A DNA stretch of 64,000 bases, from positions 1,860,001-1,924,000 of the forward strand of contig NZ_CP064338.1 in the NCBI RefSeq assembly GCF_015476235.1, written 5' to 3'. The notes below the pieces were generated by a model that saw nothing but the letters and a program-made list of their open reading frames with translations, did not search any database and was not told the DNA's origin. Source of the DNA: Caldimonas thermodepolymerans. GTDB lineage: Bacteria > Pseudomonadota > Gammaproteobacteria > Burkholderiales > Burkholderiaceae_C. Shown here in pieces: positions 7,997 to 28,806 of the stretch. Within the stretch, counting starts at the first letter, position 1; each line of letters begins with the position of its first letter. The translations under genes and the position numbers were made by a program.

Positions 7997-8145
7997 CGGT
8001 GTCGTGCGCGCCGCCAGCGGACGCGCTCCACCCGCTCCATGCGGGGGCCAACGCATCGTATCGGCGCAGGCGGGCGCTGCGCGGCCGGGCAGCGCAGGCA
8101 GAAGGCGGTGGCGAGAAATATTTGTCCCGGCAACGCGCGCGGCGT

Positions 8146-8538: not shown

Positions 8539-8567
8539 CGTTCGGCTTTCGGTGGGCCAGCCCGCAG

Positions 8568-8587
8568 GGGGCCGCGCGTGCGGCCCC
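8568..8587 (-). terminator. GC hairpin after the Ser/Thr kinase gene
   Basis: A perfect 8-bp inverted repeat (GGGGCCGC / GCGGCCCC, 4-base loop) lies 7 bases past the kinase stop codon. No T-run follows, so termination is plausible but unproven. Confidence 0.4.
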
Positions 8588-8593
8588 GCGGTG

Positions 8594-10603
8594 CTACTGC
8601 ATCACTTCATCGTGCTGGCGCAGGTAGACGCAGTGCGGATGGTTCACGAATTGCGCCTGCCGGCATTGCGTCTGCATGCAGTAGTAGAGGGCGAAGTTCG
8701 TGCGTGTGCCGCAGGCGGCGCGCGGGCTGCTCGGGCGCGCGACGACGCTGGTGCGGGTGATATCGGGCTCGGCGTCCTCCTCGGGCGGGTCCCGGGACGC
8801 CTCGGCGCGCGGCGGGGCCGCGGGCGCAGCAGGCGCTGCGGGCGTTGCCGCCTGGGGCGGGGCGGCCGGTGCGGACGGTTGCACCTCGACGATCTGCGGC
8901 GCGGTGCTTTCCGCACGCGTCGAGACCGGATCGGCATGCGGCGTCGGCCCGGCGGCAACGGGGGTGTCGGGTGGGGCGGCGGGAGCGGGCGCCGGCACGG
9001 GTGGCGACGGTGCCGGGGTGGCCTGCGCCGTCACCGGGGCGGGCGAGGGGACGGCCGCGGACGGGGCAGTGGCCGTGGCGGCCTCGGGCGCCGGGCCGGC
9101 GTCCGGCGCCAGCGGCGTGTTGGCCAGGCGCTCGAGCAGTTGCTGCGTCGTCCAGCGTTCCTGCCACTGCCAGGCGGCTGCACCCAGGACGAGCAGGATC
9201 GCCAGCGCAGCCATCCAGCGCGTGGTTGCCGGGCCACGCCTGGCCGCTGCGCGACGCTGCAGGTCGTCCTCGTCCGGGCGCATCGTCCCCCAGGCGGCAT
9301 CGGGGCGGTCGTCGGGCAGGGAGCCGAGCGCCGCATCGAGCGCGGCCATCACGGCGGCGTCCGAAGGCACCTCCTCCGACAGCGTGGGCGGCACGGCCCC
9401 GGGGGCTGCCGCAGGCGAGGTGGCGGCCGGGGGACGGGCCGGTGCTGCCGCAGGCGGCGGTGTTCCGGCAGGAGGCTGCGGCGTGGCAGGCGCCACGGTG
9501 GCAGGCGGGATGGAGGCGAACCACGCGGGTTCGGCCGCCGGTGCCGGTTCCGGCGCGACGGGCGGCCGGATGGCCGTCGCCTCCGGCGGGGCGGCAGGGG
9601 GCGCTGCGACCCGGGGGCGACGCGGCGGCACCCAGCCCGGGGCGTCGAGTGCGTCGCGCAGCTGGGTGACGGTCTGCGGCCGGTCCTGCGGGCGCACGGC
9701 CAGGGCCCACTCGATCGCCGCGAGGAAGGACGGGCTGTAGCGCAGGTCGGTGAAGGTCTGCTGCAGCGAGGCGGCGACTTCGGCGAGCGGGCGCAGCTGG
9801 TCGTCGACGGCGCGTACCGTGGAGGGCAGCGGGGACCGCCCGCTGATCAGGTAGTACATCACCGCGCCGAGCGCGTAGAGGTCGGTCCAGGGCCCCTGCT
9901 GCAGGTGTCCGGCCTCGGCGTACTGCTCGATCGGCGCGTAGGCCGGCTTGAGGATGGCCGTCAGCGTCTGGGTGCGATCACCGATGACGCGCCGCGCCGC
10001 GCCGAAATCCAGCAGCACCGGCCGGCCGTCCGGCAGCACCAGGACGTTGTCGGGCGCGATGTCGCGGTGGTAGCAGGAGCTCGCGTGCAGCACCTCGAGC
10101 GCGCCCATCAGCGACAGCAGCAGCTGGCGCAGCCAGGCTTCGTCGGGCGGCCGGGTCATCGCAAGGCGTGCGGCGGCGACGGTCGTGCCTTCGTAGTACG
10201 GCATCACCATGTAGGCGGTGCCGTTGGCTTCCCAGAAGCGGTAGACGCGCACCAGCGACGGATGGTCGAAGCGGGCCAGCAGGCGCGCCTCGTTGACGAA
10301 GGAGCGCAGCCCCAGCTTGAAGGTCTCGGCGTGCGAGGTGGCGCGCAGCGTGACGGCGGCGCGTGCCCCGCGCGCGGCCAGCGCCGCCGGCAGGTACTCC
10401 TTGATCGCCACGTGGCGCTGCAGGCCGTGGTCCGCTGCGAGGTAGACGATGCCGAAGCCGCCTTCGCCGAGCACCCGCACCACCTCGTACTCGGCCAACC
10501 GCGTGCCGGGCGGCAGCGCGTCCTGGCTGGGCATCAACGTCTGGGTCGGCTGGAACGCCGGGTCGAACGGATCCGGCGCCGCAGGTGGACGGGGGTGGTT
10601 CAT
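8594..10603 (-). CDS. Membrane-anchored Hanks-type Ser/Thr protein kinase
   Basis: A 669-residue protein. The kinase domain (about 38-300) has the glycine loop LGEGGFGIVY, the Lys in VAIKEYLP, the catalytic HRD in YHRDIAPDNVLV and DFG in LLDFGAAR. The HRD loop reads HRDIAPDN rather than the common HRDLKPEN, the form seen in many proteobacterial kinases. Next come a Pro/Ala-rich linker, one membrane helix (about 475-492), a second Pro/Ala-rich linker, and a short C-terminal domain with four cysteines ending at the C-terminus. The C-terminal part would be periplasmic. No cognate PP2C phosphatase or forkhead protein is adjacent, so its targets are unknown. Confidence 0.92.
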   Translation of the reverse strand: MNHPRPPAAPDPFDPAFQPTQTLMPSQDALPPGTRLAEYEVVRVLGEGGFGIVYLAADHGLQRHVAIKEYLPAALAARGARAAVTLRATSHAETFKLGLRSFVNEARLLARFDHPSLVRVYRFWEANGTAYMVMPYYEGTTVAAARLAMTRPPDEAWLRQLLLSLMGALEVLHASSCYHRDIAPDNVLVLPDGRPVLLDFGAARRVIGDRTQTLTAILKPAYAPIEQYAEAGHLQQGPWTDLYALGAVMYYLISGRSPLPSTVRAVDDQLRPLAEVAASLQQTFTDLRYSPSFLAAIEWALAVRPQDRPQTVTQLRDALDAPGWVPPRRPRVAAPPAAPPEATAIRPPVAPEPAPAAEPAWFASIPPATVAPATPQPPAGTPPPAAAPARPPAATSPAAAPGAVPPTLSEEVPSDAAVMAALDAALGSLPDDRPDAAWGTMRPDEDDLQRRAAARRGPATTRWMAALAILLVLGAAAWQWQERWTTQQLLERLANTPLAPDAGPAPEAATATAPSAAVPSPAPVTAQATPAPSPPVPAPAPAAPPDTPVAAGPTPHADPVSTRAESTAPQIVEVQPSAPAAPPQAATPAAPAAPAAPPRAEASRDPPEEDAEPDITRTSVVARPSSPRAACGTRTNFALYYCMQTQCRQAQFVNHPHCVYLRQHDEVMQ

Positions 10604-14930: not shown

Positions 14931-17021
14931 TCACCCTGCGCGCACGGCCGCCAGGGCCCGCGCCAGCGCCTGGGCCAACGCGGCCTTGGTGAACGGTTTG
15001 GGCAGCAGCTCGCAACGCAGGCCGGGGTCGCTGACGTCGGCCTGCGCCAGTTCCGACGAGTAGCCCGACATCAGCAGCACCGCCAGCTTCGGGCGGCGAG
15101 CGCGCACCTGGCGCACCAGCTCCGTGCCGCGCATGCCGGGGCCGAGCGCGACGTCGCTGAGCAGCGCGTCCAGTTCGGGTTCCGTGCCCAGCCGCACCAG
15201 CGCCTGTTCGGCGTTGGCACAGGCGATCACGCGGCACCCCAGTCCTTGCAGGAAGGCCTGCGCGACGGCGCGCACCTCCGGCTCGTCCTCCACCAGCAGC
15301 ACCTTCAGTCCTGGCGGCAGCAGGCCGGCTCCGCTCTCGTCCCCGCTGCCCGCGGCCTGGCGCTCCTGGTAGCGCGGGATGTAGAGCGTCACGGTGGTGC
15401 CCGCGCCCAGCGCGCTGTCGATCAGGATGGCGCCGTGCGACTGCTTGACGAAGCCGTACACCGTGCTCAACCCCAGCCCCGTGCCGCGGCCCGGCTCCTT
15501 GGTGGTGAAGAAGGGCTCGAAGGCGCGCTCCTTGACCGCGTCGGGCATGCCGGTGCCGGTGTCGCTGATCGCGATGGCGACGAACGCATGCATCGGCGGG
15601 GCGTCGGTGTCCAGGTCGCTGAGAGCGGCCGCAGGCAGCGTCTCGCAGGGGCGGCAGCTGAACGAGATCAGGCCCCCCTCGGGCATCGCGTCGCGCGCGT
15701 TGATCGCGATGTTGAGCAGCGCCGATTCCAGCTGGCCCGGGTCGGCCAGGCAGGGCGGGCAGTCGGGGGCCGCGTCGACCTCGATGCGCACGCGCTGGTC
15801 CAGGGTGCGGCGCAGCATGTCGGCCAGCGACTGCAGCATCGTCACGACGTCCACCCGCGACGGCCGCAGCACCTGGCGGCGCGAGAAGGCGAGCAGCTTG
15901 CCGGTGAGCTCGGCGCCGCGCCGGCTGGCCCGCGCGGCAGCCGCCACCAGCTGCTGCGCGTACGCGTCGCCCTCGACGGCGGGGTGTTCCTCCAGCACTT
16001 GCAGGTTGCCCTGGATGATGGTCAGCAGGTTGTTGAAGTCGTGCGCGATGCCGCCGGTCAGCTGGCCGACGCTTTCCAGGCGCTGGGCGTGCTGCAGCGC
16101 CTCCTCGCTTTGCGCGCGCTGCAGCGTCGAGGCCACCAGGTTGGCGAGCGACTCGACGAAGCGGATCTCGTCGTCGCCGAAGGTCTGTGCGCGGCGCGAG
16201 CGCACGGTCAGCACGCCGATGGCGCGGCCGCGGTCGGACAGCGGCACCGCCACCGCGCTCACCAGGCCGGCGCGAAGGTAGGCGTCAGGCACCGAGAAGC
16301 GCTGCTCGGCAGCATAGTTCTCGATGACCACCGGCCGGCCGGCGTTGAGCACGTAGCCGAGCGGCGTGTCAGGCAGGTTGGGCACGCGCGCCCCGACATG
16401 TTCCTCGTCCAGCAGCCCGATGCCGCTGGCCACGCGGAACGCGAGCCGGTCGGGCTCGAGCAGGAAGATCGCGCACAGGTCGGCTTCCAGGCCGTTGACG
16501 GCCACCGCCGGCACCTGCTGCAACAGCAGCTGCGGGTCGCGCGTGTCGACCGCCAGCCGCCCCATCTGCGCCACGTGTTCGCTGTAGCGGGCGCGCTGCA
16601 ACGCCTGCTTGACGCGCGGGTAGGCGCCGATGCCGCGGATCGCGGCCACCACGTACGGCAGGCCCTCGCCGTGCAGCGGGCTGAGCGCGATCTCGACCAT
16701 CACCTCGCTGCCGTCGCGGCGCTTGGCCACCAGCTCCATCTGCGTGCCCATGGGCCGTGGCCGCGGGTTGACGCCGTAGGCCGCGCGGTAGGCCGCATGG
16801 CGCGGCCGGATCGCGTCGGGCACCAGGGCCTCGACCGGCAGGCCGACCAGTTCGTCCGGGGCGTAGCCGAGCAGGTCCGAGGCCATCGGGTTGGCCATCA
16901 CGATCTGGCCGGTCGCGTCGACCAGCAGCAGCGCGTCGGGATAGGCCTTGAACAGGGCGCGGAAGACGCTCGGGTGGTCGACGTCGGGTCGCACCGAGCC
17001 GGGGGGAAGGTCGCCAGGCAT
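14931..17021 (-). CDS. Hybrid sensor histidine kinase (PAS-GAF-HisKA-HATPase-REC)
   Basis: A 696-residue soluble kinase. PAS domain at about 18-130; GAF at about 155-300; HisKA with the phospho-acceptor His in LTGGIAHDFNNLLT (near 325); ATPase with N box and G boxes (DTGTGMP, GTGLGLSTVYGF); C-terminal receiver (about 575-690) with phospho-acceptor Asp in LLSDVALG. No membrane segments, so it senses a cytoplasmic signal. Its ATG overlaps the upstream response-regulator stop codon by one base (TGATG) with GGAG 6 bases before it, so the pair is coupled and probably forms one pathway. The signal is unknown. Confidence 0.93.
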   Translation of the reverse strand: MPGDLPPGSVRPDVDHPSVFRALFKAYPDALLLVDATGQIVMANPMASDLLGYAPDELVGLPVEALVPDAIRPRHAAYRAAYGVNPRPRPMGTQMELVAKRRDGSEVMVEIALSPLHGEGLPYVVAAIRGIGAYPRVKQALQRARYSEHVAQMGRLAVDTRDPQLLLQQVPAVAVNGLEADLCAIFLLEPDRLAFRVASGIGLLDEEHVGARVPNLPDTPLGYVLNAGRPVVIENYAAEQRFSVPDAYLRAGLVSAVAVPLSDRGRAIGVLTVRSRRAQTFGDDEIRFVESLANLVASTLQRAQSEEALQHAQRLESVGQLTGGIAHDFNNLLTIIQGNLQVLEEHPAVEGDAYAQQLVAAAARASRRGAELTGKLLAFSRRQVLRPSRVDVVTMLQSLADMLRRTLDQRVRIEVDAAPDCPPCLADPGQLESALLNIAINARDAMPEGGLISFSCRPCETLPAAALSDLDTDAPPMHAFVAIAISDTGTGMPDAVKERAFEPFFTTKEPGRGTGLGLSTVYGFVKQSHGAILIDSALGAGTTVTLYIPRYQERQAAGSGDESGAGLLPPGLKVLLVEDEPEVRAVAQAFLQGLGCRVIACANAEQALVRLGTEPELDALLSDVALGPGMRGTELVRQVRARRPKLAVLLMSGYSSELAQADVSDPGLRCELLPKPFTKAALAQALARALAAVRAG

Positions 17022-17758
17022 CACACGAGCTCCACGTCCGGCACGAACAGGTAGCCGGCGCCGCGCACGGACTTGATGAAGGATTGCTCGCCGGCGTCGG
17101 TGCCGAGCTTCTTGCGCAGGCGGCCCACCAGCACGTCGACGGTCCGGTCGAAGGGCGCGGCTTCGCGCCCGCGGGTGTTCTCGAGCAGGAAGTCGCGCGA
17201 CAGCACGCGCCCGGGGTGGCGTGCGAACACCGCGAGCAGGTCGAACTCGCCGGTGGTCAGCACCACCTCCTTGCCGTCGGGCGCCAGCAGGCGGCGCGCC
17301 GCGGTGTCCAGCTCCCAGCCGGCAAAGCGCAGCCGGGTGCGTTCGGCCGGGGGCGCCACGGCGAGCACGGCAGGCGGTGGCGCCGGCGGGGTGAGGCGCC
17401 TCAGCACGGCCTTGATGCGGGCCACCAGCTCGCGCAGGTCAAAGGGCTTGGTGACGTAGTCGTCGGCGCCGATCTCCAGCCCGACCACCTTGTCCACCGG
17501 GTCGCCGCGGCCGGTGACGATCACCAGCCCGCAGTGGAAGTGCTCGCGCAGCTGGCGGGCGATGACGAAACCGTCCTCGCCCGGCAGCCCGAGGTCCAGC
17601 AGCACGAGTTCCGGCGGATCGGCGCGCATCAGGTCCATCAGCGCGCGCCCGCTGTGGAGCTGGCTGACCCGGAAGCCGTGGCTGTGCAGGTAGCCGGCCA
17701 GCAGCTGGGTGATGTCGACTTCGTCGTCGAGAACGGCAATGTGGGTTACGGTGGTCAC
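17021..17758 (-). CDS. OmpR-family response regulator
   Basis: A protein of about 245 residues with an N-terminal receiver (acidic pair DDE near residue 10, phospho-acceptor Asp in LVLLDLGLPGEDG, Lys in YVTKPFD) and a C-terminal winged-helix DNA-binding domain ending in SVRGAGYLF. The conserved domain begins right after a GTG at 17758. An ATG at 17836 with GGAG about 9 bases upstream would add 26 residues of no recognised homology, so the start is open. It is the first gene of the pair with the hybrid kinase. Confidence 0.92.
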   Translation of the reverse strand: MTTVTHIAVLDDEVDITQLLAGYLHSHGFRVSQLHSGRALMDLMRADPPELVLLDLGLPGEDGFVIARQLREHFHCGLVIVTGRGDPVDKVVGLEIGADDYVTKPFDLRELVARIKAVLRRLTPPAPPPAVLAVAPPAERTRLRFAGWELDTAARRLLAPDGKEVVLTTGEFDLLAVFARHPGRVLSRDFLLENTRGREAAPFDRTVDVLVGRLRKKLGTDAGEQSFIKSVRGAGYLFVPDVELV

Positions 17759-18014
17759 GGAATCGGTCTGGGAGGGAAGGGGGCCACGGCAGCCGTGGCG
17801 GTGTCGTTCTCTCCGGCTTTCGGCCGCATCCGGCATTCTGCCGTGCTCCGGCGCCGCCTGCGCGCGGGCCGCGTCCCGCCGTCCGGGTCTTGATGCATGT
17901 CAATCCGTTGCCCGCCTGCCGCGATGGCCCTTCGCACCCGGCGGGCACGCCGGGCCGTGGTACCGTTCGCGGCTGGATGCCGACTCCTGCGGTGCGCTTG
18001 CAACAACCGACTCC

Positions 18015-18698: not shown

Positions 18699-19670
18699 AT
18701 GTTCCACCCCACCCCCGAGCTGCTGCCGTACTGGTACACGACGGCCGTGCTCCTGGTCGATGACGACGAGGGCTACCTCGACGCTCTGGGTTCGCTGCTC
18801 TCCGCCGACCGCAAGGTTTACGCCTGTTCCAGCCACCAGGAGGCACTGGAAGTCCTGGAACACTCGAAGACGGTCAGCCGCAACTTCATCCGGCGCAGCA
18901 CCGACCAGAGCACCGCCCCGCACGAACACCTGCTGGCCATCGACACCTCGCGCGTCACGAGCCTCGCGCACGAACCGCGCCGCCACGACGAGATCGCGCT
19001 GGTCATCGCCGACTACTCGATGCCCGAAGGCGACGGGCTCACGCTGTGCCGTGCGCTGTTGAACTATCCCTGCCGGCGCATCCTCCTGACCGGCGCGGCC
19101 GACGAACGGCTGGCGGTCGAGGCGTTCAACGAGCGCCTGATCCACCAGTTCCTGCGCAAGGCCGACCGGCTCGCCGACGTGTTGCCGCGCATGGTCGCGG
19201 TGCAGCAGCATGCCTATTTCCGCGAGCTGACCCGTCCGCTGGCCGAAGGGCTGCAGCAGCGCCTCGGCGCCTTCGAGCACGACCCCGCGGTGGCCGAGGC
19301 CGTGCTGGCGCTGTTTGCCGAAGCCGACGTGGCAGAGTACTACCTTTGCACCGAGCCCGGCGGCTACCTGGTGCGCACCGCGCGCGGGCAGTGGCGTTTC
19401 CTGCTCGTGCAGTCCAACGAGGAGCGCGAGTCCACCCTCGAGATCCTGCAGAGCATGCCGCGCTTCGAGCCGCTGGTCAGCCAGCATGCGCGCGGCGACG
19501 CGCTGCTGTACCTGTCCGACCCGTCGCGCCTGCCGCGTGCCGGTGGCTACGAGGGTTTCGTGGTGCCGCCGCTGCGGACCGTCTCCACCCCCGCGCAGAC
19601 CTACCGCCTCGCGTGGGTCGACGCCCCGGGGCACATGACGCCGCACAGCGTGCGCGGAGGCCGCTGTTGA
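18699..19670 (+). CDS. Atypical response regulator of the alpha-hydroxyketone system (LqsR/JqsR-like)
   Basis: A 323-residue protein. Its receiver has the acidic triplet Asp21-Asp23 (VLLVDDDEG), the phospho-acceptor Asp105 in LVIADYSMPEGDG, the Thr in ILLTGAADE and the Lys in FLRKAD. About 84 residues separate Asp21 from Asp105, against about 44 in ordinary receivers, so there is an insertion of about 40 residues (roughly 57-98). The C-terminal half (about 165-323) is not a recognised DNA-binding domain. By position beside a CqsS-like kinase and a CqsA-like synthase it fits the LqsR/JqsR role. Its stop overlaps the kinase TTG start (TTGA), indicating coupling. Confidence 0.85.
   Translation: MFHPTPELLPYWYTTAVLLVDDDEGYLDALGSLLSADRKVYACSSHQEALEVLEHSKTVSRNFIRRSTDQSTAPHEHLLAIDTSRVTSLAHEPRRHDEIALVIADYSMPEGDGLTLCRALLNYPCRRILLTGAADERLAVEAFNERLIHQFLRKADRLADVLPRMVAVQQHAYFRELTRPLAEGLQQRLGAFEHDPAVAEAVLALFAEADVAEYYLCTEPGGYLVRTARGQWRFLLVQSNEERESTLEILQSMPRFEPLVSQHARGDALLYLSDPSRLPRAGGYEGFVVPPLRTVSTPAQTYRLAWVDAPGHMTPHSVRGGRC
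19656..19660 (+). promoter_or_regulatory. Ribosome binding site fixing a TTG start for the sensor kinase
   Basis: GGAGG ends 6 bases before TTG at 19667, which overlaps the stop codon of the regulator. The next in-frame ATGs (near 19758) have no comparable site, so a coupled TTG start is favoured. Confidence 0.6.
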
Positions 19671-21019
19671 GCCGGCTGGCGTCGACCGGGCCCTATTCCT
19701 CCCCGGGGACACGCAAGCCGGGGGCGCTGTTTCACGCGTGGATCGCCCGCCTGCGGGCGATGATGGGCAGCTTCCAGCGGCCCAGTGGCGCGCCGATGCT
19801 CGATGCGGTGCTGGACAGCGCGATCGACGCCTGGCCGGCGCGGATCTGCGTCGGCCTGATGGGCGTGCTGGGGTTCCCGCTGTTCTACGTGGTGTGGAAG
19901 TACCTCGAGCCGCAACCCTACGAATCGCTCGCGCTGCGGCTGGCGCTGGCGGCGCTGTTCCTGCCGTTCCTGGCCCCGAGGTCATGGCTGGAGCCCTTGC
20001 GGCGCTACTGGCCGTGGTACTGGCACGGCACGCTGCTGCTCGCGCTGCCGTTCTTCTTCATGTTCATGGCGCTGGAGAACGACACCACGCAATGGGCGCT
20101 CAGCTACCTGACCGCGCTGATGTTCACCGTGGTGCTGGCGCCGGCCGCGCTCGCGGCGGTGATGGTGATCGCCGGTGGCGCCGCCGCGCTGCTGCTGCAC
20201 CTGGCGCGGCACCCGGGCGCAGACCTGTCGCAGCACGTGATGGTCGACGCCTGGCCGGTGATGCTGTTCGCGTTCGGCGGCGGGCTGATCCTGAACCTCG
20301 CGGTGGCCCAGCACAAGCGCCGGCGCACCGAGGCGCTGCTGTCGGTGGCCGGCTTCGTCGCGCACGAGCTGCGCACGCCGCTGTCGGCCATCGAGATGCA
20401 GCTCGATGCCTGCGCCCACGCCCCGCAGCGCCTGGCCGAGCGCCTGCCGATGCTGCAGCGCGAAACCCGCCGTGCCCACGTGTTCATCGACATGCTGCTG
20501 GCCAGCGTGCAACCCACGCGGCTGCAGGCGCACCAGCACCAGCCGGTCAGCATCGCGCAGGTGGTGCGCAATGCCGTGCAGCGCTATCCGTACGCCAACG
20601 AACACCAGCGTCGCGCGGTGCGCATCCAGATGGCAGACGACTTCGTCGTCGAAGGCGTGGAGATCCTGCTCGAGCACCTGGTGCTCAACCTGATGAAGAA
20701 CGCCTACACCCACGGCGGCGGCCTGCCGGGCTTCTGCATCACCATCTCCACCGAGACCCGTCCTGCGGCGCACGTGCTCGTGGTCGCGGACAACGGCCGC
20801 GGGATCGACGAGCACGAGCTGCCGCGCGTGCTGCAGCGCTACTACCGCGGGCAGGGCAGCACGGCCCTGGGCAGCGGGCTGGGGCTGTCGTTCTGCCAGG
20901 ACGTGATGCGCAGCCTGGGCGGCAACCTGGAGGTCGAGTCCAGCACGCGGCGGGGGACCAGCATGAAGCTGGTGTTCCCCCGTTTTCCCGCCGATCAGGC
21001 GGCCAGGACCGCCGCCTGA
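19667..21019 (+). CDS. cqsS: CqsS/LqsS-type sensor histidine kinase
   Basis: A 450-residue membrane kinase. Residues about 60-212 form six hydrophobic helices that match the Vibrio CqsS sensor domain from memory: LMGVLGFPLFYVVWKYLEPQ and the LPFFFMF region. Trp143 and Ser146 in QWALSY correspond to the W-x-x-S pair near the CqsS ligand site. The phospho-acceptor is His233 in VAHELRTPLSAIE, followed by an ATPase domain with GSGLGLSFCQDVM. Unlike Vibrio CqsS it has no C-terminal receiver, as in LqsS. It would sense an alpha-hydroxyketone and act on the coupled regulator. Its 3' end overlaps the convergent synthase gene by 25 bases. Confidence 0.9.
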   Translation: MSRLASTGPYSSPGTRKPGALFHAWIARLRAMMGSFQRPSGAPMLDAVLDSAIDAWPARICVGLMGVLGFPLFYVVWKYLEPQPYESLALRLALAALFLPFLAPRSWLEPLRRYWPWYWHGTLLLALPFFFMFMALENDTTQWALSYLTALMFTVVLAPAALAAVMVIAGGAAALLLHLARHPGADLSQHVMVDAWPVMLFAFGGGLILNLAVAQHKRRRTEALLSVAGFVAHELRTPLSAIEMQLDACAHAPQRLAERLPMLQRETRRAHVFIDMLLASVQPTRLQAHQHQPVSIAQVVRNAVQRYPYANEHQRRAVRIQMADDFVVEGVEILLEHLVLNLMKNAYTHGGGLPGFCITISTETRPAAHVLVVADNGRGIDEHELPRVLQRYYRGQGSTALGSGLGLSFCQDVMRSLGGNLEVESSTRRGTSMKLVFPRFPADQAARTAA

Positions 21020-22254
21020 GGCAGCGTCGGCACCGGCGCGGACGCCGCCGGTGCGGCGGTGCGGGCGGCGCCGCGGCCGGGCTGCAGGTAGGGCAGGGCG
21101 TACTCCATCGCTTCCAGCACGCGGTCGATGTCCGCGTCGCTGAGCCGGGCGTTGACGGTCAGCCGCAGGATGGCGTTGCGCCACTCGGTGGCCGGGTACC
21201 AGAACAGCGAGCCGTAGACCCCGCGGCGCTCCAGCGCGTCGCGCAGCGCCACCGCGTTGAGCACCGGGCCGCTGCGGATGCCGATGATCTGCTCTGTGCC
21301 GTTGCTGATGTCGTAGCCGAGCGCGCGGATGCCTTCGCGCAGGCGCCGCGTGTTGTGCCACAGCCGCTCGCGCCGCTGCGGCTCCCCGGCGATCACGTCC
21401 AGCGTCGCGTCGAGCCGGGCCACCTCGTGCTCCAGCAGCGTCGAGCTGAAGATCGCCGGGAACGACGAGAAGCGGATGTACTCCACGTAGCGCTTGCTGC
21501 AGGCGATGAAGCCGGCCCGGTAGGCGAAGGCCTTGGCCAGGCTGGCGGTGACGAAGTGCACCCGCGACGATAGGCCCAGCGCGCGGACCAGGCCCTCGCC
21601 GCGGTCGCCGTGGGTGCCCAGCGAGTGCGACTCGTCGACCACCAGCACGCAGCCGGTGGCCTCGGCGATCTCGACCATCGCAAGCAGGGGACAGACGCTG
21701 CCGCTGGTGCTGTAGACCGAGTCGACCACGATCACGCCGGGACCGTGGGTGGCCACCAGCTGGCGCAGCTCCTCGGTGTCGTTGTGCGGGAAGCGCACGG
21801 CCTGCGCCTCGGCGGCGTGGATGCCCTGCCACAGCGAGGCGTGCGCGTACTGGTCGATGTAGACGGGCTGCCCCTGCTGGGCCACGACCTGCAGCAGGCC
21901 GACGTTGGCGTCGTAGCCCGACTGGCACAGGATGCCCGCTTCCATGCCCATGTAGCTGGCCAGGCGTTCCTCGAAGCGCGCGGACGGGGTGGCCGCACCG
22001 CGCAGGAACACGAAGATCGGCGACATCACGCTGGCCGAGGCTTCCTCGCGCAGGCTGCGCACGGTTGCCTCGATGATGTGGGGATGGTCGGCCAGCGACA
22101 GGTAGTCGTTCGACTGCAGCGAGAGGCTGTCGCCCGCCGGCTGTTCCACGCTGTACCAGAACGGCAGTCCCGGCTTTCGCGGGTGGTCGAAGAACCGCTT
22201 GCGGAAGAAGCGGTCCACCTGCTGGTCGAGAAAGCTGGGATGGGTTGGCGTCAT
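20995..22254 (-). CDS. cqsA: CqsA/LqsA-type alpha-hydroxyketone autoinducer synthase
   Basis: A 419-residue PLP enzyme of the alpha-oxoamine synthase group. In CqsA this group condenses a fatty acyl-CoA with an S-adenosylmethionine- or aminobutyrate-derived amine to make the precursor of CAI-1-like signals. Near-identical blocks to Vibrio CqsA are LQSNDYLSLADHP, HGPGVIVVDSVYST, VVDESHSLGTHG (PLP Asp207) and FVTASLAKAFAYRAG (PLP Lys241). Start at 22254 has AAGGAG 7 bases before it. The last 25 or so residues are Ala/Pro-rich, go beyond the family end and overlap the kinase gene. Chain length of the product cannot be read from the sequence. Confidence 0.94.
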   Translation of the reverse strand: MTPTHPSFLDQQVDRFFRKRFFDHPRKPGLPFWYSVEQPAGDSLSLQSNDYLSLADHPHIIEATVRSLREEASASVMSPIFVFLRGAATPSARFEERLASYMGMEAGILCQSGYDANVGLLQVVAQQGQPVYIDQYAHASLWQGIHAAEAQAVRFPHNDTEELRQLVATHGPGVIVVDSVYSTSGSVCPLLAMVEIAEATGCVLVVDESHSLGTHGDRGEGLVRALGLSSRVHFVTASLAKAFAYRAGFIACSKRYVEYIRFSSFPAIFSSTLLEHEVARLDATLDVIAGEPQRRERLWHNTRRLREGIRALGYDISNGTEQIIGIRSGPVLNAVALRDALERRGVYGSLFWYPATEWRNAILRLTVNARLSDADIDRVLEAMEYALPYLQPGRGAARTAAPAASAPVPTLPQAAVLAA

Positions 22255-22624
22255 GGGAAGGCTCCTTGGTGTGAGTACGACTTGTGGAAAAGACGCGGGA
22301 ACGACACCGGCGCTGCCTCGAGGACGAGCAGCCGGCCTCGAGACGGGTCGCCCGAAGGAAGGGTGAAGCCAATGACGCCTTCGGGAAGGGTTCTCTGCGA
22401 TGCACGCCTGCTGCGACGCGGCACGCGCACCCCTGCTGCCTGACAAGGAGGGCACCGGCGGTCGCGTCCGCACAGAGCTTCGTGGATTGCGTGCAGGGCT
22501 GCAAGCTGCAACCGGACGGAGGGCAACGCCGTACCGATGACGGGCATGTCGTCGGGGCGGTCATCGGGCCAGGCGTGCATGGGCCTCCCTCTAGAATGCC
22601 GGCATTCCTCCAGTCCGAGCTGCC
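22255..22624. promoter_or_regulatory. Divergent intergenic region cqsA / PBP-like gene
   Basis: 370 bases with no convincing gene between divergently transcribed cqsA and the PBP-like gene. It must hold both promoters. The sequence CTAGAATGCCGGCATTC (22592-22608) contains a perfect 12-bp palindrome, GAATGCCGGCATTC in its extended form, just 16 bases before the PBP start, where an operator would be expected. Confidence 0.45.
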
Positions 22625-24952
22625 ATGAGTGCCCCGCCTTCCGTAGCGACCGGTCCTGCGCGGCGATGGTGGCACGCCGTGCCGGCCGGCATGCGCGGGG
22701 TGCTGCGGGTCGTCTCGGTGGGGCTGGCTGCCGGTGCAGCACTCCTGGCCTCGGCGACGATGCTGGCCGGCATCTGCTACGCCGTGGCCTATCCCCACCT
22801 CCCGGACCTGGGCGAGCTTACCGACTACCGGCCCCGTCTGCCAATGCGGGTCTATGCCGCCGATGGCGTGCTGCTGGGCGAATATGGCGAGGAGCGCCGG
22901 CATTTCCTGTCGCTCGACGAGATCCCGCAGGTGATGCAGGACGCGCTGCTGTCGGTGGAGGACGCGCGCTTCCACCAGCACGGCGGCATCGACTTCCTGC
23001 GCGTGCTGGGTGCCAGCCTGCACAACCTCGTGGCACCGCTGAGCCAGGGGGCTTCGACGATCACGATGCAGCTGGCGCGCAACTTCTACCTGCCCACCGA
23101 GAAGACCTTCACCCGCAAGCTCTACGAAGCCATGCTGGCGCTGAAGATCGAGAGCCAGCTCGGCAAGCGGCAGATCCTCGAGACCTACATGAACCAGATC
23201 TACCTGGGGCAGCGGGCCTACGGCTTTGCCGCGGCCAGCGAGATCTACTTCGGCAAGCCCCTGCAGGACGTCACGCTCGCCGAGGCGGCGTTGCTGGCCG
23301 GCCTGCCGCAGTCGCCGTCGAGGCTCGATCCCCTGGTCAACCCGCAGCGCGCCAAGGCCAGGCAGCTGGTGGTGCTGGAGCGCATGTACCGCAACGGCAT
23401 CATCACCCGCGAGCAGCGCGACGCGGCAGGTGCCGAGCCGCTGCACTACCGGGCGCGCGAGCAGCTGCCGCCCTATGCCCGCCCGCTGGCGGAGACGGCG
23501 CGTCGCATCGTCGTGCGGCAGTACGGCAGCGAGGCGTACACGCGCGGGCTGAACGTGCACCTGACCGTCACCTCCAGCGAACAGGAAGCGGCCTACCGCG
23601 CGGTGCGCGAGGCCGTGCTGGCCCATGAACGCGGCCGGCCCTACCGTGGCCCGGAAGGCGAAGTGCGCCTGCCCGACGATCCGGAGGCGGTGGACGAGCG
23701 GGTGGCCGAGGCGCTGCGCGCGCATCCGGACCGCGGCGAGCTGCTGGCCGCGGTGGTGCTGGAAGCGCAGCCCGGGCGCCTGCAGGTCATGCTGCGCGAC
23801 GGCACGACGGTGACGCTGGGCGGGCCAGGGCTTGCGCTGGCCCCCCATGCAGCGACCTCGACACCGCTGCGGCGCGGCGCGATCGTGCGCGTGTGGCAGT
23901 CGCAGGCCGGTGCATGGCAGCTGACCCAGCTGCCCCGCGTGGAGGCGGCACTGGTGGCGCTCGACCCGCGCGACGGTGCGGTGCGTGCCTGGGTGGGCGG
24001 CTTTGCGCCGCGGCCCGGTGCCGAGGAGCGGGTCGCCCAGGGCGGGCGCGAGGCCGGCACCAGCCTGGCGCCCTTCATCTATGCGGCAGCACTCGAGCAG
24101 GGGCATACCGCGAGCACGGTGGTCGAATGGCGGCCCGGGGCACCGGAGGTCGCGGGGCAGGGGGAGGGGACGGTGCCCGAAGCGCGGAACGACGTCGCGC
24201 CGCTGGTGCTGCGCCAAGCGCTGGCCGCCGCGCAGCCGGAGACGACCCGGCGCCTTGTCGAGGCGCTGGGACCGGACCAGGTGCAGGCATGGTTGCGTCG
24301 CTTCGGCTTCGATCCGGCATCGCCGCCGGACGGTGCGTCGATGACCGCGGGCACCGAGGCGATCACGCCGCTGCAGCTGGCCTCGGCCCATGCCGTGCTG
24401 GCCAATGGCGGCTACCGGGTCCGCCCGGTGCTGGTGCGCCGGCTCACCGATGCGGACGGACGGGTGCTGAAGGAGACCTTGCCCCGGCTGCCGGGCGACT
24501 CGGCACGGGTCATCGATGCGCGCAATGCATTCGTGATCACCAGGCTGCTGCACGAGGCCAGCCGCATGAACTTCGGTGGCCGGGCAGGGCGCTGGCTGCA
24601 CCGGCCGGACGTGCAGGGCCATGCCGGCAGCACCCGCGACGGCGGCGATGCCTGGTTCGCCGGCTTCCAGCCCGGTGTCGTGGCCGTGGCCTGGGTGGGC
24701 GACGAGCCGCCGCGCCCGCATGGCGAGCGCGATGCGCACGGCAAACCGAGCCTGCCGATCTGGCTGGACTACATGAGGTTTGCACTGCGCGACACCCCGG
24801 TCATGCGGCCGGCGGTGCCCGACGGCGTCGTGAACATCGACGGCCAGTGGTACTACCGCGAGTACACCCCCGACAGCGGCATCCGCAGCCTGGATCCGGC
24901 GCCGCCCGCAGGGCCGTCGCTGCCAGCCGATTCCCTGCCGAGCGGGGAGTGA
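22625..24952 (+). CDS. Class A penicillin-binding protein with intact glycosyltransferase and degenerate transpeptidase
   Basis: A 775-residue protein with an N-terminal membrane helix (about 27-56). The GT51 domain has all its motifs: EDARFHQHGG (Glu112 catalytic), GASTITMQLARN (142-153), RKLYE (164-168) and KRQILETYMN (181-190). It should therefore polymerise lipid II into glycan strands. The transpeptidase-like half (about 440-720) keeps the fold-level similarity, but SxxK is TSLA (479-482), SxN is AQP (536-538) and KTG is HAG (666-668). It thus lacks the acylated Ser and both assisting motifs. No frameshift is present. It is read divergently from cqsA. Confidence 0.92.
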   Translation: MSAPPSVATGPARRWWHAVPAGMRGVLRVVSVGLAAGAALLASATMLAGICYAVAYPHLPDLGELTDYRPRLPMRVYAADGVLLGEYGEERRHFLSLDEIPQVMQDALLSVEDARFHQHGGIDFLRVLGASLHNLVAPLSQGASTITMQLARNFYLPTEKTFTRKLYEAMLALKIESQLGKRQILETYMNQIYLGQRAYGFAAASEIYFGKPLQDVTLAEAALLAGLPQSPSRLDPLVNPQRAKARQLVVLERMYRNGIITREQRDAAGAEPLHYRAREQLPPYARPLAETARRIVVRQYGSEAYTRGLNVHLTVTSSEQEAAYRAVREAVLAHERGRPYRGPEGEVRLPDDPEAVDERVAEALRAHPDRGELLAAVVLEAQPGRLQVMLRDGTTVTLGGPGLALAPHAATSTPLRRGAIVRVWQSQAGAWQLTQLPRVEAALVALDPRDGAVRAWVGGFAPRPGAEERVAQGGREAGTSLAPFIYAAALEQGHTASTVVEWRPGAPEVAGQGEGTVPEARNDVAPLVLRQALAAAQPETTRRLVEALGPDQVQAWLRRFGFDPASPPDGASMTAGTEAITPLQLASAHAVLANGGYRVRPVLVRRLTDADGRVLKETLPRLPGDSARVIDARNAFVITRLLHEASRMNFGGRAGRWLHRPDVQGHAGSTRDGGDAWFAGFQPGVVAVAWVGDEPPRPHGERDAHGKPSLPIWLDYMRFALRDTPVMRPAVPDGVVNIDGQWYYREYTPDSGIRSLDPAPPAGPSLPADSLPSGE

Positions 24953-25212
24953 CGACCCGGTGCCGTGCCTGGCACGGCAGGCCCTGAAGCGCAACACCCT
25001 GGCAATCCTGCCGGCTTGCGCCGGCCATCCGCCGCGTCACACTCGGTGTCCGACGACCCGCCGGCGCATCCGGGCCGTCCGCGGCAAGGCGAGCACCACG
25101 GCGGGGCGTGCAGAAGTCGCAGGGGCGTGGCCCGCCTGCCGCCGCGCCCCGGACCGCGCTTGCTTCCGTCCGCCGGCATTGTCATCATCGTTGCGCGCTC
25201 GCGAACACGCCG

Positions 25213-26577
25213 ATGTATTCCATCCTTCCTGCCCTCGTGGCTGCCCTGTTTCTCGCCTGTGGCCTGTACGTGGCCGTGGACCGCGGGCGCAGCCGCGTGA
25301 CCGACGCGTTCCTGCTGCTGTGCCTGACCACCGCGGTGTGGCAGGGCACCTGGGCGGTGCTGTTCCAGACCGAGGATGCGGCTGTCGCGTCGGTGCTGGT
25401 GCGGGTCGGCTACCTGTTCATCCTGTTCCTGCCGACCGCGCTCTACCAGTTCCTCGCCGAGATCGCCGAGGTGCGCAGCGAGCGGCGCTGGGTCGGCGTG
25501 TCGTACGGCGTGGCGGGCCTGCTGGCGCTCACGCTGGTGACGACCGACTGGTTCGTCGCGGGCTACTACCGGTACGAATGGGGCTACTACCCCGAGGCCG
25601 GTCCGCTGCACCTGGTGCACGTGGCGCAGACCGCCATCGTCGTGCTGCGCGGGCTGTGGCTGAACGTGCGCGAGCAGGCGCATGCCCCGCCGCTGCAGCG
25701 CGCGCGCCTGCGCCTGTGCATCGCCAGCATGTTCATCTACTTCTTCGCGGCGACCGACTACCTCTGCAACTACGGCTACGACTTCTACCCGGTCGGCGTG
25801 CTGTTCAACGCGGCCAGCCTGGCCATCATCCTGGTCGCGATCCTCAAGTACGACCTGATGAACAACAACGTGGTCATCGCCACGGTGGCCCACGAGGTGC
25901 GCACGCCGCTGGCGACGATCCGGTTGCACGCAGCGGCGGTCGACCGTTACTGGCAGGAGGTGGTGGCCGGCTACCGGCTGGCCGTCGAACACGGGCTGTG
26001 CCCCACGGTGCCGACGATGGCGATCGAGGAGGTCGTCCGCCTGCCCGCGCGCATCGCGCGGGAGGTGGATCGTTCCAACATGATCGTCGACCTGATGGTG
26101 GCCTCCTCGCGGCTGAGCCGGGTCGACGAGAGCGACTTCGTGACCGCCAGCGCGGTGGCCTGCATCGAGGAGGCCGTCGAGCGCTACCCCTACGGCCCCG
26201 GCGAGCGCGAGCGCGTGCACGTGCGGCTGGGCGAGGACTTCGAGTTCTGGGGCTCGCCGGCACTGCTGGTCAACGTGATCTTCAACCTGCTGAAGAACGC
26301 GCTGCAGGCGATCAAGCAGGCCGGGCAGGGCGAGGTGACGATCGAAACCGGGCGGCAGGGCGCCCACCCGTGCATCATCGTCACGGACACCGGGCCGGGC
26401 ATCCCGCGCCAGGTGCAGCGCCGCCTGTTCCACCCGTTCTGGACCACCAAGCGCGGCGATGCGGGCGGGATCGGGCTGGCGTTCTGCCGCAACGTCATGA
26501 AGGCGTTCGGCGGCAGGATCCGCTGCGATTCGCGGCCGGGACGCACGGCCTTCACCCTGCAGTTCCCGGCGGCTTGA
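25213..26577 (+). CDS. Second sensor kinase with CqsS-like catalytic half and 7TM-type sensor
   Basis: A 454-residue kinase with about seven hydrophobic helices (1-22, 32-52, 60-84, 95-115, 133-150, 165-182, 193-212), unlike the six-helix CqsS sensor and closer to histidine-kinase 7TM N-terminal domains. The phospho-acceptor is His227 in TVAHEVRTPLATIRL. Catalytic-half blocks closely follow CqsS: ERYPYGPGERE, FNLLKNALQAIKQ, IGLAFCRNVMKAFGGRIRC. It has no receiver. The gene lies 260 bases after the PBP-like gene. By similarity it may feed the same regulator, like a second sensor (LqsT in Legionella). Start ATG lacks a strong ribosome site. Confidence 0.88.
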   Translation: MYSILPALVAALFLACGLYVAVDRGRSRVTDAFLLLCLTTAVWQGTWAVLFQTEDAAVASVLVRVGYLFILFLPTALYQFLAEIAEVRSERRWVGVSYGVAGLLALTLVTTDWFVAGYYRYEWGYYPEAGPLHLVHVAQTAIVVLRGLWLNVREQAHAPPLQRARLRLCIASMFIYFFAATDYLCNYGYDFYPVGVLFNAASLAIILVAILKYDLMNNNVVIATVAHEVRTPLATIRLHAAAVDRYWQEVVAGYRLAVEHGLCPTVPTMAIEEVVRLPARIAREVDRSNMIVDLMVASSRLSRVDESDFVTASAVACIEEAVERYPYGPGERERVHVRLGEDFEFWGSPALLVNVIFNLLKNALQAIKQAGQGEVTIETGRQGAHPCIIVTDTGPGIPRQVQRRLFHPFWTTKRGDAGGIGLAFCRNVMKAFGGRIRCDSRPGRTAFTLQFPAA

Positions 26578-26582
26578 GCCGC

Positions 26583-26603
26583 GCCGGCAGGGCGCCTGCC
26601 GGC
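26583..26603. terminator. Perfect hairpin between convergent genes
   Basis: GCCGGCAGG and CCTGCCGGC form a perfect 9-bp stem with a 3-base loop in the 57-base gap between the second sensor kinase and the convergent thioesterase gene. No T-run, but position and stability fit a bidirectional terminator. Confidence 0.5.
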
Positions 26604-26634
26604 ACCCCGGCCGCGCAGCCGCATGCCGCCGCGC

Positions 26635-27132
26635 TCAGACGGGCAGCGGCGCTTCCGCGAGCTCGTACTCCTTGATGCGTGCCAGCACGTCTTCGGGCAG
26701 CCGCTGGATGCGCTTGTCCTCACGGGCGAAGACGATCTGCTGGTAGCCGGTCGACACCAGGGTGTCCTCGACGTGGAAGCGGAACAGCAGGTAGAACGAG
26801 CAGCGCGAGACGTTGAACGTGTTGAGGTGGCACTCGACGGTCTGGAACGGGAAGGTCTCGTGCACGTACTCCTGGTGCGCCCGCTTCGTGATGAACACCC
26901 CCTGGTCGCGCAGCAGGTCCGGCGCGATGCACTGGTAGAACCAGCGCTCGCGGCAGATGCCCTGCCACTCGAAGTAGCGCGAGAAATAGGTGTTCATGTA
27001 GGCGTTCGAGTCCTTCAGGTAGATCTCGATCGCGTGGCGGAAGGTCTTGGGCGCCGCCGGTTCGCAGACCTTGCGCTGCAGGGCGCGGGCGGGAGCCGTG
27101 ACGGGGCCGCGGTGGGGGGCTTCGATGTACAT
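26635..27132 (-). CDS. Hotdog-fold acyl-CoA thioesterase
   Basis: A 165-residue protein of the 4-hydroxybenzoyl-CoA-thioesterase type. The motif LKDSNAYMNTYFSRYFEWQG (about 40-59) matches the family active-site helix, with Asp41 and Asn43 in the usual positions. Start at 27132 has AAGGAG 6 bases before it. Such enzymes cleave acyl-CoA or acyl-carrier thioesters. Its place beside a CqsA-type synthase, which consumes acyl-CoA, suggests a link to signal precursor supply, but this is inferred from context alone. It is convergent with the second kinase. Confidence 0.8.
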   Translation of the reverse strand: MYIEAPHRGPVTAPARALQRKVCEPAAPKTFRHAIEIYLKDSNAYMNTYFSRYFEWQGICRERWFYQCIAPDLLRDQGVFITKRAHQEYVHETFPFQTVECHLNTFNVSRCSFYLLFRFHVEDTLVSTGYQQIVFAREDKRIQRLPEDVLARIKEYELAEAPLPV

Positions 27133-28383
27133 TGAGTTCTCCTTCAGTTGAAAAGTGCTGTCCGCGACAGCGATATCCGCGGCCCATCGGCCGCAGGCAT
27201 TCGGTGACTGTGAACTCAAGGGGACGCTTGCCGGGACATCGACCGGCCGCCGGTGCGTCGGCAGCGGCTCCTCCTCCAACGCTGCACGGTTGAAGCCGCC
27301 AGGGATCCGTCCGCCGTCGATGCTGTGGGGCGGCGATCCTTGCGTCAAGGCCCGTCGCGGCCCAGGACCGGTCCCTGGCGCGCGGGCTGGGTGCACCGCG
27401 AGCGGCTGCGACGGCATGACGGGTGGTGCGGGGCGCTGTGGATGGCACGTGGAGAGGCTCGCTGATGGCAGGTTCATGGCCTGCCTCCATTCGGGGATCC
27501 GGGGCAACCGACAGGGCAGGCGGGGCCGGTGGAGCGTCGGTCGCGTGCCGTACATGTCGGCGTTTGCGCGCCAAGCCTGAGGCTGCCACGGCCGAGGCTC
27601 GCACCGAGTTGGACGGCCGGCAGGACGTCGCGCGCTGTCTCCGGGACCCCTGTTGCGCATGCTTCACCCGCACGTCCGCTGCACCGCGCAGCGGGTTCGC
27701 CTTTCACGGCCCATTCCACGTGCGGTCGGCCAGTGAAGGGAACCTGTCAGTCTTCGCAGGTTCCGCTCGAGTGGGAGCGCCGCACTCGAGCCACCAGCCG
27801 GTGTACCAGTTCGAGTTCGTCGACGAGGACGCCCCGGTCCTCGGCGTGGGCATGCCGGCGCAGCCCGACCCCGGCTTCCGGCTGGGCGCCGAGCACCCGC
27901 CGCGCTCAACGGCCTGCTCCTGAACCGTTCGAACACCTCGCGCATCGACGCGACCGAGCTGCCTGCGCGTCGCAGCAGCTCGCCGGCCGCGCCACGCTGG
28001 CGGCGCCACGGTGCAGCGTCTGGCACCCGGCAAGGTCGGCCCGGTCGATGCGGCCAAGGCGCACCGTTGCGGGTTACGGCACGGGCTGTATCCGCAGCGC
28101 CTGCAGTGCTGAGTCCCGGCGCCGGCGCTGGACGCCCTGTCGCGCATCCGGGGCAGGGGGCGTTGACGCCCTCGCGTCGAACGGAACAGGAACGCATCAG
28201 CCCCTAGAATGGCCCGGCGCACCCGCCCGTGCGCAGGAAGATCCCCCGCCCGAATGCCCGACTTGGTGGCCGTGTCACTGGCGGATGCAGGATCGGCCCT
28301 TCATGCGCTCACCGTCGACCCGCGTGCGCAGTCCCGGGTCGACCGAGCCCGCGGGCAGATGTCTTTGTCCTGAAACAACCCTC
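27133..28383. other. 1.25-kb region without a recognisable gene
   Basis: Several open frames of 80-180 codons exist on both strands, but none has a convincing ribosome site, fold pattern or family motif, and they contradict one another. The first 60 bases must hold the thioesterase promoter. The rest may be decayed coding sequence: the stretch 27805-27900 reads as an acidic, protein-like segment ([20 protein letters not shown]) but is not part of a complete frame. Confidence 0.4.
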
Positions 28384-28806
28384 ATGAGCGAGATCACGAT
28401 CTATCACAACCCTGCCTGCGGGACGAGCCGCAACGTGCTGGGGCTGATCCGTCACGCCGGCTTCGAGCCGCGCATCGTCGAGTACCTGAAGACGCCGCCG
28501 ACCAAGGAAGAGCTGCGTCAGCTGCTTGCCGAGATGGGCATCGGCGTGCGCGACCTGTTGCGCGAGAAGGGCACGCCGTACGCGGAACTGGGCCTGTCCG
28601 ACCCGAAGTGGACCGATGAAGAGCTGCTGGATTTCATCCAGCAGCACCCCATCCTGATGAACCGGCCCGTGGTGCGCACCCCGCTGGGGACCAAGCTGTG
28701 CCGTCCTTCGGACGAAGTGCTCGAGCTGCTGCCCGTGGGCAAGCTGGAGCCGTTCGTCAGGGAGGATGGCGAGACGGTCATCGACCACGGGAAGCGGCGC
28801 GGCTGA
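28384..28806 (+). CDS. arsC: Arsenate reductase, glutaredoxin-dependent ArsC type
   Basis: A 140-residue protein with the ArsC signature IYHNPACGTSRNVLGLIR (Cys of the active site near residue 12) and the arsenate-binding arginines in MNRPVVRTPLG. It reduces arsenate to arsenite with glutathione/glutaredoxin. No arsR, arsB or acr3 gene is near it. It stands alone between two gene-poor stretches, so a role in general thiol chemistry cannot be ruled out. Confidence 0.93.
   Translation: MSEITIYHNPACGTSRNVLGLIRHAGFEPRIVEYLKTPPTKEELRQLLAEMGIGVRDLLREKGTPYAELGLSDPKWTDEELLDFIQQHPILMNRPVVRTPLGTKLCRPSDEVLELLPVGKLEPFVREDGETVIDHGKRRG

What the first reader, a model, noticed from the sequence alone, without database searches (positions are those of the whole stretch)
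18699..27132. Alpha-hydroxyketone quorum-sensing island (Cqs/Lqs/Jqs type) with two sensor kinases
Seen: a CqsA-like synthase (419 aa, near-exact CqsA blocks), a CqsS-like six-helix kinase without receiver, and a coupled atypical response regulator. A second kinase nearby has the same CqsS-like catalytic half but a different seven-helix sensor. A thioesterase ends the block. Known: such systems are described in Vibrio (CqsA/CqsS), Legionella (LqsA/R/S/T) and Janthinobacterium (JqsA/S/R). Inference: this is a complete circuit with two inputs and a possible acyl-CoA-editing enzyme.
Basis: partly seen in the sequence, partly recalled or inferred. Interest (0 to 1): 0.88.

Follow-up and report, generated by a model that had tools for sequence, protein, structure and literature searches.

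The report
Quorum-sensing island beside sensor–thioesterase module
A bacterium carries a known kind of chemical-signalling circuit (alpha-hydroxyketone quorum sensing) next to a second, separately inherited pair, a membrane sensor kinase and a thioesterase, that recurs across related bacteria and may be an unrecognised signalling module of its own.

Summary
The synthase at 20995-22254 is a true CqsA: it passes the curated cut-off and groups inside CqsA. K1 (19763-21019) and the response regulator (18699-19670) are its Jqs/Lqs-type partners. The trio is divergent, closest to one same-genus genome and Roseateles, with altered acyl-pocket residues. The second kinase K2 (25213-26577) shares the catalytic half (profile E 1.6e-80) but not the sensor.

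The 'single island' reading needs correcting. K2 and the thioesterase TE (26635-27132) are a separate conserved module, tail to tail in 29 of 30 TE loci examined. TE occurs in 70 of 299 genomes of one related family, 42 without cqsA. An LqsR-type regulator was found in all 70 TE genomes, but in 40 of 229 without TE. TE resembles enediyne thioesterases (CalE7, DynE7, EspE7) and keeps the arginine mutated in an EspE7 structure.

Best mechanism (inferred): CqsA-K1-RR is an alpha-hydroxyketone circuit. K2 is a second input, here probably to the same regulator, the only LqsR-family one detected in this genome. TE makes or trims K2's acyl-derived ligand. Where the only such regulator looks like the kinase-less PhcX, K2 is a candidate partner. 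Ligand, phosphotransfer and TE chemistry are untested.

The parts
18699..19670 (+). LqsR/JqsR-type response regulator (RR), 323 aa, receiver with insert plus C-terminal output domain
19763..21019 (+). K1: CqsS/JqsS-type membrane histidine kinase without receiver (start 19760, 19763 or 19796 uncertain); lacks about 25 residues of the DHp region that many homologues and K2 have
20995..22254 (-). cqsA: alpha-hydroxyketone autoinducer synthase, 419 aa, divergent acyl pocket; 3' end overlaps K1
22625..24952 (+). PBP1A-family gene, not part of the system; syntenic beside cqsA in G002 too
25213..26577 (+). K2: seven-helix (PF16927) histidine kinase with the same catalytic half as K1
26635..27132 (-). 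TE: hotdog thioesterase of CalE7/DynE7/EspE7 type, convergent partner of K2

Best explanation
Two signalling modules lie side by side. Module A (cqsA, K1, RR): CqsA condenses an acyl-CoA with S-adenosylmethionine to an alpha-aminoketone/alpha-hydroxyketone signal, K1 senses it, RR carries the output (inferred from family). Module B (K2, TE): a widespread, separately inherited pair in which TE hydrolyses an acyl-ACP or acyl-CoA (possibly a 3-oxoacyl thioester) and its product, or the substrate pool it controls, is what the K2 seven-helix domain senses. K2 has an LqsS-type kinase core, so it most likely signals to an LqsR-family regulator: its own RR' where there is one, otherwise the Cqs RR (here) or a PhcX-like regulator. 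Shown: gene content, homology, linkage, co-occurrence, domain swap. Inferred: ligand, enzyme chemistry, phosphotransfer, convergence on RR.
For: CqsA identity. Canonical neighbourhood: 76 of 80 named cqsA loci carry both an RR-like and a K1-like gene, the other 4 end at a contig edge. K2-TE: of 30 wide TE loci, K2 adjacent and convergent in 29; among the 25 largest neighbour clusters printed, the only other gene spread over several genera was RR' (11 of 30). On plasmids the full-length K2 and the TE (at least 60% identity) hit the same 11 records. Of 299 genomes of the G193 family: TE 70, cqsA 56, LqsR-family regulator 110; TE with regulator 70 of 70, without TE 40 of 229. RR' adjoins K2 in the same direction in L140, L182, L187. 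Own genome: one LqsR-family regulator at E 1e-9, at the Cqs locus. TE: nearest PDB sequences CalE7 1.7e-8, 5vpj, 9ccr (EspE7), DynE7, 4i4j (SgcE10); the same group on top by fold, along with 3ck1; N43 and R61 invariant in 22 aligned TEs.
Against: TE-regulator co-occurrence is structured by genus (TE in 6 genera of the sample), so the Fisher values overstate independence. The own RR scores only 4.3e-17 with the query used, so other divergent regulators could be missed. TE-PDB identity is only 20-25% and ordinary YbgC-like thioesterases match the fold nearly as well. Full-length K2 occurs without TE in G289; TE without K2 nearby in G688 (L176). K2's phosphoacceptor His is Gln in 3 of 30 (L144, L145, L146). 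K1 rows do not form one group in the kinase tree, and the window RR is on a long branch. In the eight g127 regulator loci fetched no kinase like K1 or K2 was found near the PhcX-like gene. A seven-TM kinase of R. solanacearum, Shk, pulled down RSc0040, and PhcX is not named in the main text of that paper (PMC12993560); whether Shk is K2 is unknown.
Confidence: 0.6

Rival explanations
1. One integrated circuit: K2 is a second receptor for the CqsA signal (LqsT-like) and TE edits the acyl-CoA pool or destroys signal precursors for CqsA.
For: Physical proximity here and in Trinickia (L053: K2, TE, RR', cqsA, RR, K1 within about 7 kb); in the genus, the same 2 of 9 genomes hold cqsA above cut-off and TE; TE and cqsA co-occur more than expected in one family (28 of 70 against 28 of 229).
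Against: 42 of 70 TE genomes lack cqsA; in G002 and G042 the pair is not at the cqsA locus; the K2 sensor shows no similarity to the Cqs-type sensor.
Confidence: 0.2
2. K2-TE is a metabolic or envelope sensor (for example of lipid or fatty-acid stress), with TE as a local housekeeping thioesterase under K2 control, and no cell-cell signal.
For: A PF16927 sensor also sits on a diguanylate cyclase beside TE in L194 and beside the second K2 in L195, so such sensors are not tied to quorum sensing; in the Shk work phcA fell in planta but not in vitro (PMC12993560; Shk not shown to be K2).
Against: LqsS-type catalytic core and co-occurrence with LqsR-family regulators; TE is closest in sequence to natural-product thioesterases.
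Confidence: 0.25
3. The K2-TE neighbourhood next to cqsA in this genome is chance proximity, with K2 using an unrelated regulator.
For: A PBP1A gene separates them; in G002 the Cqs-PBP block is kept without K2-TE in the 20 kb fetched.
Against: Trinickia shows the same proximity, though it is 1 of 80 named cqsA loci; the own genome has only one detected LqsR-family regulator.
Confidence: 0.25

Closest known systems
JqsA/JqsS/JqsR of Janthinobacterium (PMC3566124, passages read)
   Same: Synthase, receiver-less kinase and LqsR-type regulator side by side (L109, L115)
   Different: Here K1 lies tail to tail with cqsA (in L109 and L115 the kinase is also beside cqsA but head to head); divergent clade and altered acyl pocket
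CqsA/CqsS of Vibrio (PMC3285556, passages read; PDB 2wk7)
   Same: CqsA by sequence, catalytic lysine kept (K241 in all 88 rows); K1 belongs to the same kinase class by family
   Different: V. cholerae lacks an LqsR homologue in its cluster (PMC3566124); the acyl pocket stretch H30-V32 reads aromatic here (register uncertain by one) and C346 reads W352
LqsA/R/S/T of Legionella (PMC10653808, passages read)
   Same: One synthase, one LqsR-type regulator, two kinases
   Different: LqsS and LqsT are called homologous in that paper; K2's sensor shows no similarity to K1's and it has a thioesterase partner. No Legionella sequence other than PDB 6sy9 (identity recalled) was compared
PhcX of Ralstonia (PMC10653808, passages read)
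   Same: LqsR-family regulator; the paper says Lqs synthase and sensor kinases are missing in the R. solanacearum complex
   Different: PhcX lies by phc genes; the word thioesterase has no hit in that paper
CalE7/DynE7/SgcE10/EspE7 enediyne thioesterases
   Same: Hotdog fold; Asn and Arg aligned (N43, R61)
   Different: 20-25% identity; no polyketide synthase among the families found beside K2-TE

Membership tests
CqsA/LqsA/JqsA synthase | Passes equivalog model NF005526 and groups with CqsA, not KBL/AONS | tested here: met
   494.4 bits over 428; group of 35 CqsA rows separated from 12 other AOS rows at SH-aLRT 99
CqsA/LqsA/JqsA synthase | Makes an alpha-amino/hydroxyketone from acyl-CoA and SAM | not testable with these tools
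   needs enzyme assay and mass spectrometry
CqsS/LqsS/JqsS kinase (K1) | Sensor and catalytic halves align with kinases of named cqsA loci, phosphoacceptor His kept | tested here: met
   in the catalytic tree K1 rows fall in more than one group
CqsS/LqsS/JqsS kinase (K2) | LqsS-type catalytic half | tested here: met
   hhalign E 1.6e-80; K2 one clade (92) next to K1 groups (80)
CqsS/LqsS/JqsS kinase (K2) | CqsS-type six-helix sensor | tested here: not met
   no sensor similarity; seven helices
LqsR family regulator | Similarity over most of its length to LqsR (PDB 6sy9; that 6sy9 is LqsR is recalled) | tested here: met
   E 1.1e-50 over profile 1-266 of 319, profile of RR plus nine RR'
CalE7-type thioesterase | Best sequence matches and among the best fold matches, plus the Asn/Arg pair | tested here: met
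   roles of the pair recalled, Arg supported by the title of 9ccr (R35A)
CalE7-type thioesterase | Releases 3-oxo acids that become methyl ketones | not testable with these tools
   needs enzyme assay; the CalE7 paper was not held

The most novel reading that the evidence does not exclude
K2-TE(-RR') is an unrecognised cell-cell signalling system of Burkholderiales: a CalE7-like thioesterase makes a 3-oxo-acid or methyl-ketone type signal from fatty-acid intermediates, sensed by a seven-helix kinase that shares the alpha-hydroxyketone kinase core, and read out by LqsR-family regulators. It would supply a kinase for PhcX-like regulators left without one, and in this genome it would merge with CqsA signalling at one regulator.
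Probability: 0.22. Interest if true: 0.85.

Novelty: new variant of a known kind. Interest (0 to 1): 0.6.

Why it matters
The Cqs part extends a known quorum-sensing type to a divergent lineage with altered pocket residues, predicting a different acyl tail. The K2-TE pair is the more valuable lead: a gene pair conserved across six genera of one family sample and beyond, whose co-occurrence with LqsR-family regulators makes the output side directly testable, and which offers a candidate kinase for PhcX-like regulators.

Tried and rejected
Synthase as KBL/AONS/SPT: rejected. Viral origin of the synthase: one single-protein viral scan, 2 pattern matches, no relative. K2 as a copy of K1 with a drifted sensor: no sensor similarity. 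TE as CqsA partner: rejected as the general rule by distribution. K2 as Shk (RSp0220) of R. solanacearum: not resolved. RSp0219 is listed as a hydroxylase; of 10 ORFs near K2-TE in L194 and L195 scanned, 7 gave Pfam families (GGDEF with PF16927, amidohydrolase, methyltransferase, solute-binding) and 3 none; no Ralstonia plasmid record was hit, but whether such records are in that collection was not checked. Host identity: single 3,858,501-base contig; my guess of Caldimonas thermodepolymerans is recall and was not confirmed. RNA families: none at gathering threshold. K2 fold search: the 50 rows shown are kinase cores or other kinases, nothing informative for the sensor. Literature searches aimed at a K2-TE-like system: (15 of 39 papers listed; 4 of 4; 12 of 153; 10 of 55) showed none by title or abstract; this is not proof of absence.

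Names phcS and phcR are my labels. Trees are quick ones without bootstrap. One search used 35 of 88 CqsA rows, 31 of 81 K1 and 17 of 30 K2 rows, 62 RR rows of a chosen set of loci. Genes come from six-frame ORFs, no gene caller. The clustering also returned antisense shadow ORFs, which I disregarded. Some plasmid records in the 30 TE loci may be near kin of genomes in the same set (for example L142 and L189). Two further TE-like plasmid hits below 60% identity (Sinorhizobium, Gloeothece) had no full-length K2 and were left out of the count.
Full report
Observation. From left to right: RR 18699-19670 (+), K1 about 19763-21019 (+), cqsA 20995-22254 (-), a PBP1A gene 22625-24952 (+), K2 25213-26577 (+), TE 26635-27132 (-). 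The K1 and cqsA 3' ends overlap.

Synthase. NF005526 scores 494.4 bits against a cut-off of 428, and the next model (bioF) 238. CqsA of V. cholerae is the best solved structure by sequence, E 2.2e-98, the best KBL 5.6e-45. In a tree of 35 CqsA and 12 other AOS-family rows, CqsA is one group (SH-aLRT 99), and the window, G002 and Roseateles caseinilyticus form a clade of three (99) beside the other 32 (84). The three share inserts and substitutions. PMC3285556 (passages) lists the V. cholerae acyl pocket as H30, V32, F79, F257, I263, F264, C346, P348, A349. In the 88-row alignment the H30-V32 stretch falls at F32-W33-Y34 of the window; the pairwise alignment puts it one residue earlier. C346 falls at W352, where the 85 rows other than the three read C 74, S 6, F 2, I 1, W 1, M 1. 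The residues at the other pocket positions (F81, F262, I268, F269, P354, A355) are the same as in V. cholerae by the alignment, which I read by eye. This predicts a different acyl tail (inference).

K1 and RR. Of 80 named cqsA loci, 76 carry both an RR-like and a K1-like gene; L040, L045, L056 and L105 end at a contig edge. Janthinobacterium loci L109 and L115 are among the 76, so the Jqs comparison is direct. Gene order varies: in many loci the RR lies between kinase and cqsA, while the window, L037 and L038 have RR then kinase tail to tail with cqsA, and L109 and L115 have the kinase head to head with cqsA. Window K1 lacks about 25 residues of the DHp region that many homologues and K2 keep. 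A profile of RR plus nine RR' matches PDB 6sy9 at 1.1e-50; that this is LqsR is recalled. The receiver residues D21, D22, D105 and K154 are invariant in that alignment.

K2. Catalytic halves of K1 and K2 match at probability 100, E 1.6e-80 over 240 columns; the sensor halves do not match. AF2 gives seven helices and a beta hairpin before the kinase part, mean pLDDT 78.6, and Pfam calls HisKA_7TM. In a 60-row catalytic tree K2 is one clade (92) beside K1 groups; K1 itself falls in more than one group. The sensor has many invariant polar and aromatic residues in 22 rows (W43, Q44, W47, Q52, Y98, Y126, H136, Q139, T140, D182, Y183, N186, Y187, Y192).

TE. Nearest solved sequences are CalE7 (1.7e-8), 5vpj, 9ccr (EspE7), DynE7 and 4i4j (SgcE10) (names of 9ccr and 4i4j). 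The AF2 model (pLDDT 76.8) finds the same group on top together with 3ck1, with YbgC-like proteins close behind. N43 and R61 are invariant in 22 TEs; R61 aligns with the position that reads Ala in 9ccr, whose title is EspE7 R35A. That CalE7 uses Asn19 and Arg37 and yields methyl ketones is recalled; the paper was not available. A YbgC-like thioesterase of S. meliloti forms 2-tridecanone, an infochemical, in vitro, though its deletion did not significantly change release (PMC12794305, abstract).

K2-TE is its own module. Among 399 genomes of the order, full-length K2 was found in 4 and TE in 3. On plasmids the 11 records with full-length K2 are the 11 with TE at 60% or more. In 30 wide TE loci, one per genome or record, K2 is adjacent and convergent in 29, with gaps of 3-98 bases. 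Clustering all neighbours found, among the 25 largest clusters printed, RR' (11 of 30) as the only further gene spread over several genera, plus lineage-specific blocks and shadow ORFs. The exception is L176 (G688). In the genus, 2 of 9 genomes have TE, and the same two have cqsA above cut-off. In G002 the pair is on another contig, while the RR-K1-cqsA-PBP block is syntenic. In Trinickia terrae K2, TE and RR' lie directly beside cqsA, RR and K1 (L053); it is the only one of 80 named cqsA loci with full-length K2 or TE in the stretch held.

Co-occurrence. In 299 genomes of the G193 family: TE 70, cqsA 56, LqsR-family regulator at 1e-12 110. TE and regulator 70 of 70, against 40 of 229 without TE; cqsA and regulator 56 of 56; TE and cqsA 28 of 70 against 28 of 229. 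RR' is in 42 of the 70, covering all TE genomes of g152, g160, g204 and g193; the 28 without RR' are all of g127 and g203. Seven genomes have RR' without TE. In three g203 loci the regulator lies by kinases weakly similar to K1/K2 (L225, L228, L230), consistent with PhcX beside phcBSRQ (PMC10653808, passages); in the eight g127 loci fetched no such kinase was found nearby. That paper states that Lqs synthase and kinases are missing in the R. solanacearum complex and that PhcX descended from the Lqs system; in my tree the PhcX-like rows are one group (77, weak) near Oxalobacteraceae Cqs regulators, RR' another (100). In 19 genomes examined, 17 had exactly one LqsR-family regulator at 1e-9, and G289 and G708 two. 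These counts are not phylogenetically independent.

Mechanism. For module A the function follows from established families. For module B, K2's core and its company point to LqsR-family output; in this genome the only such regulator detected is the Cqs RR, so two sensors on one regulator is the simplest reading. Constant TE linkage suggests TE makes, trims or removes the ligand. A ketone or 3-oxo acid is attractive because the related kinases sense ketones, but this is a guess from fold and residues.

Literature. Passages were read of PMC3566124, PMC3285556, PMC10653808, PMC12993560 (also its outline and section 16), PMC3107222 and PMC4371752; outline and abstract only of PMC12794305; PMC12906555 and PMC6989110 were searched by term without hits. 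PMC12993560 describes a seven-TM kinase Shk of R. solanacearum that affects quorum-sensing-dependent traits and pulls down RSc0040; whether it is K2 could not be settled. The listings showed no description of the K2-TE pair.

Verdict. The Cqs part is a divergent member of a known kind. The K2-TE part is a conserved pairing for which I found no description, with a clear set of tests.

Noticed in passing
L194 5649-7547; L195 4458-6272: A diguanylate cyclase with the same Pfam seven-helix sensor class (PF16927) as K2 lies beside TE in L194 and beside the second K2 in L195; direct profile comparison with K2 is weak.
   Followed up: partly
L195 6296-7678 and 8501-9889: Two K2 genes flank one TE in G566.
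   Followed up: no
L144, L145, L146 (K2 at 8001-9455): K2 of three Paraburkholderia plasmid records has Gln instead of the phosphoacceptor His, and no RR' was found nearby.
   Followed up: no
window 14931-17836: A PAS-GAF hybrid histidine kinase and an OmpR-type regulator lie upstream on the other strand.
   Followed up: no
G708 C2:822404-823585: A second CqsA-like gene with one internal stop in a genome that also has an intact one.
   Followed up: no
window ORF 27529-28806, piece 28609-28803: ArsC-family reductase gene downstream of TE; only its last 65 residues were scanned.
   Followed up: no
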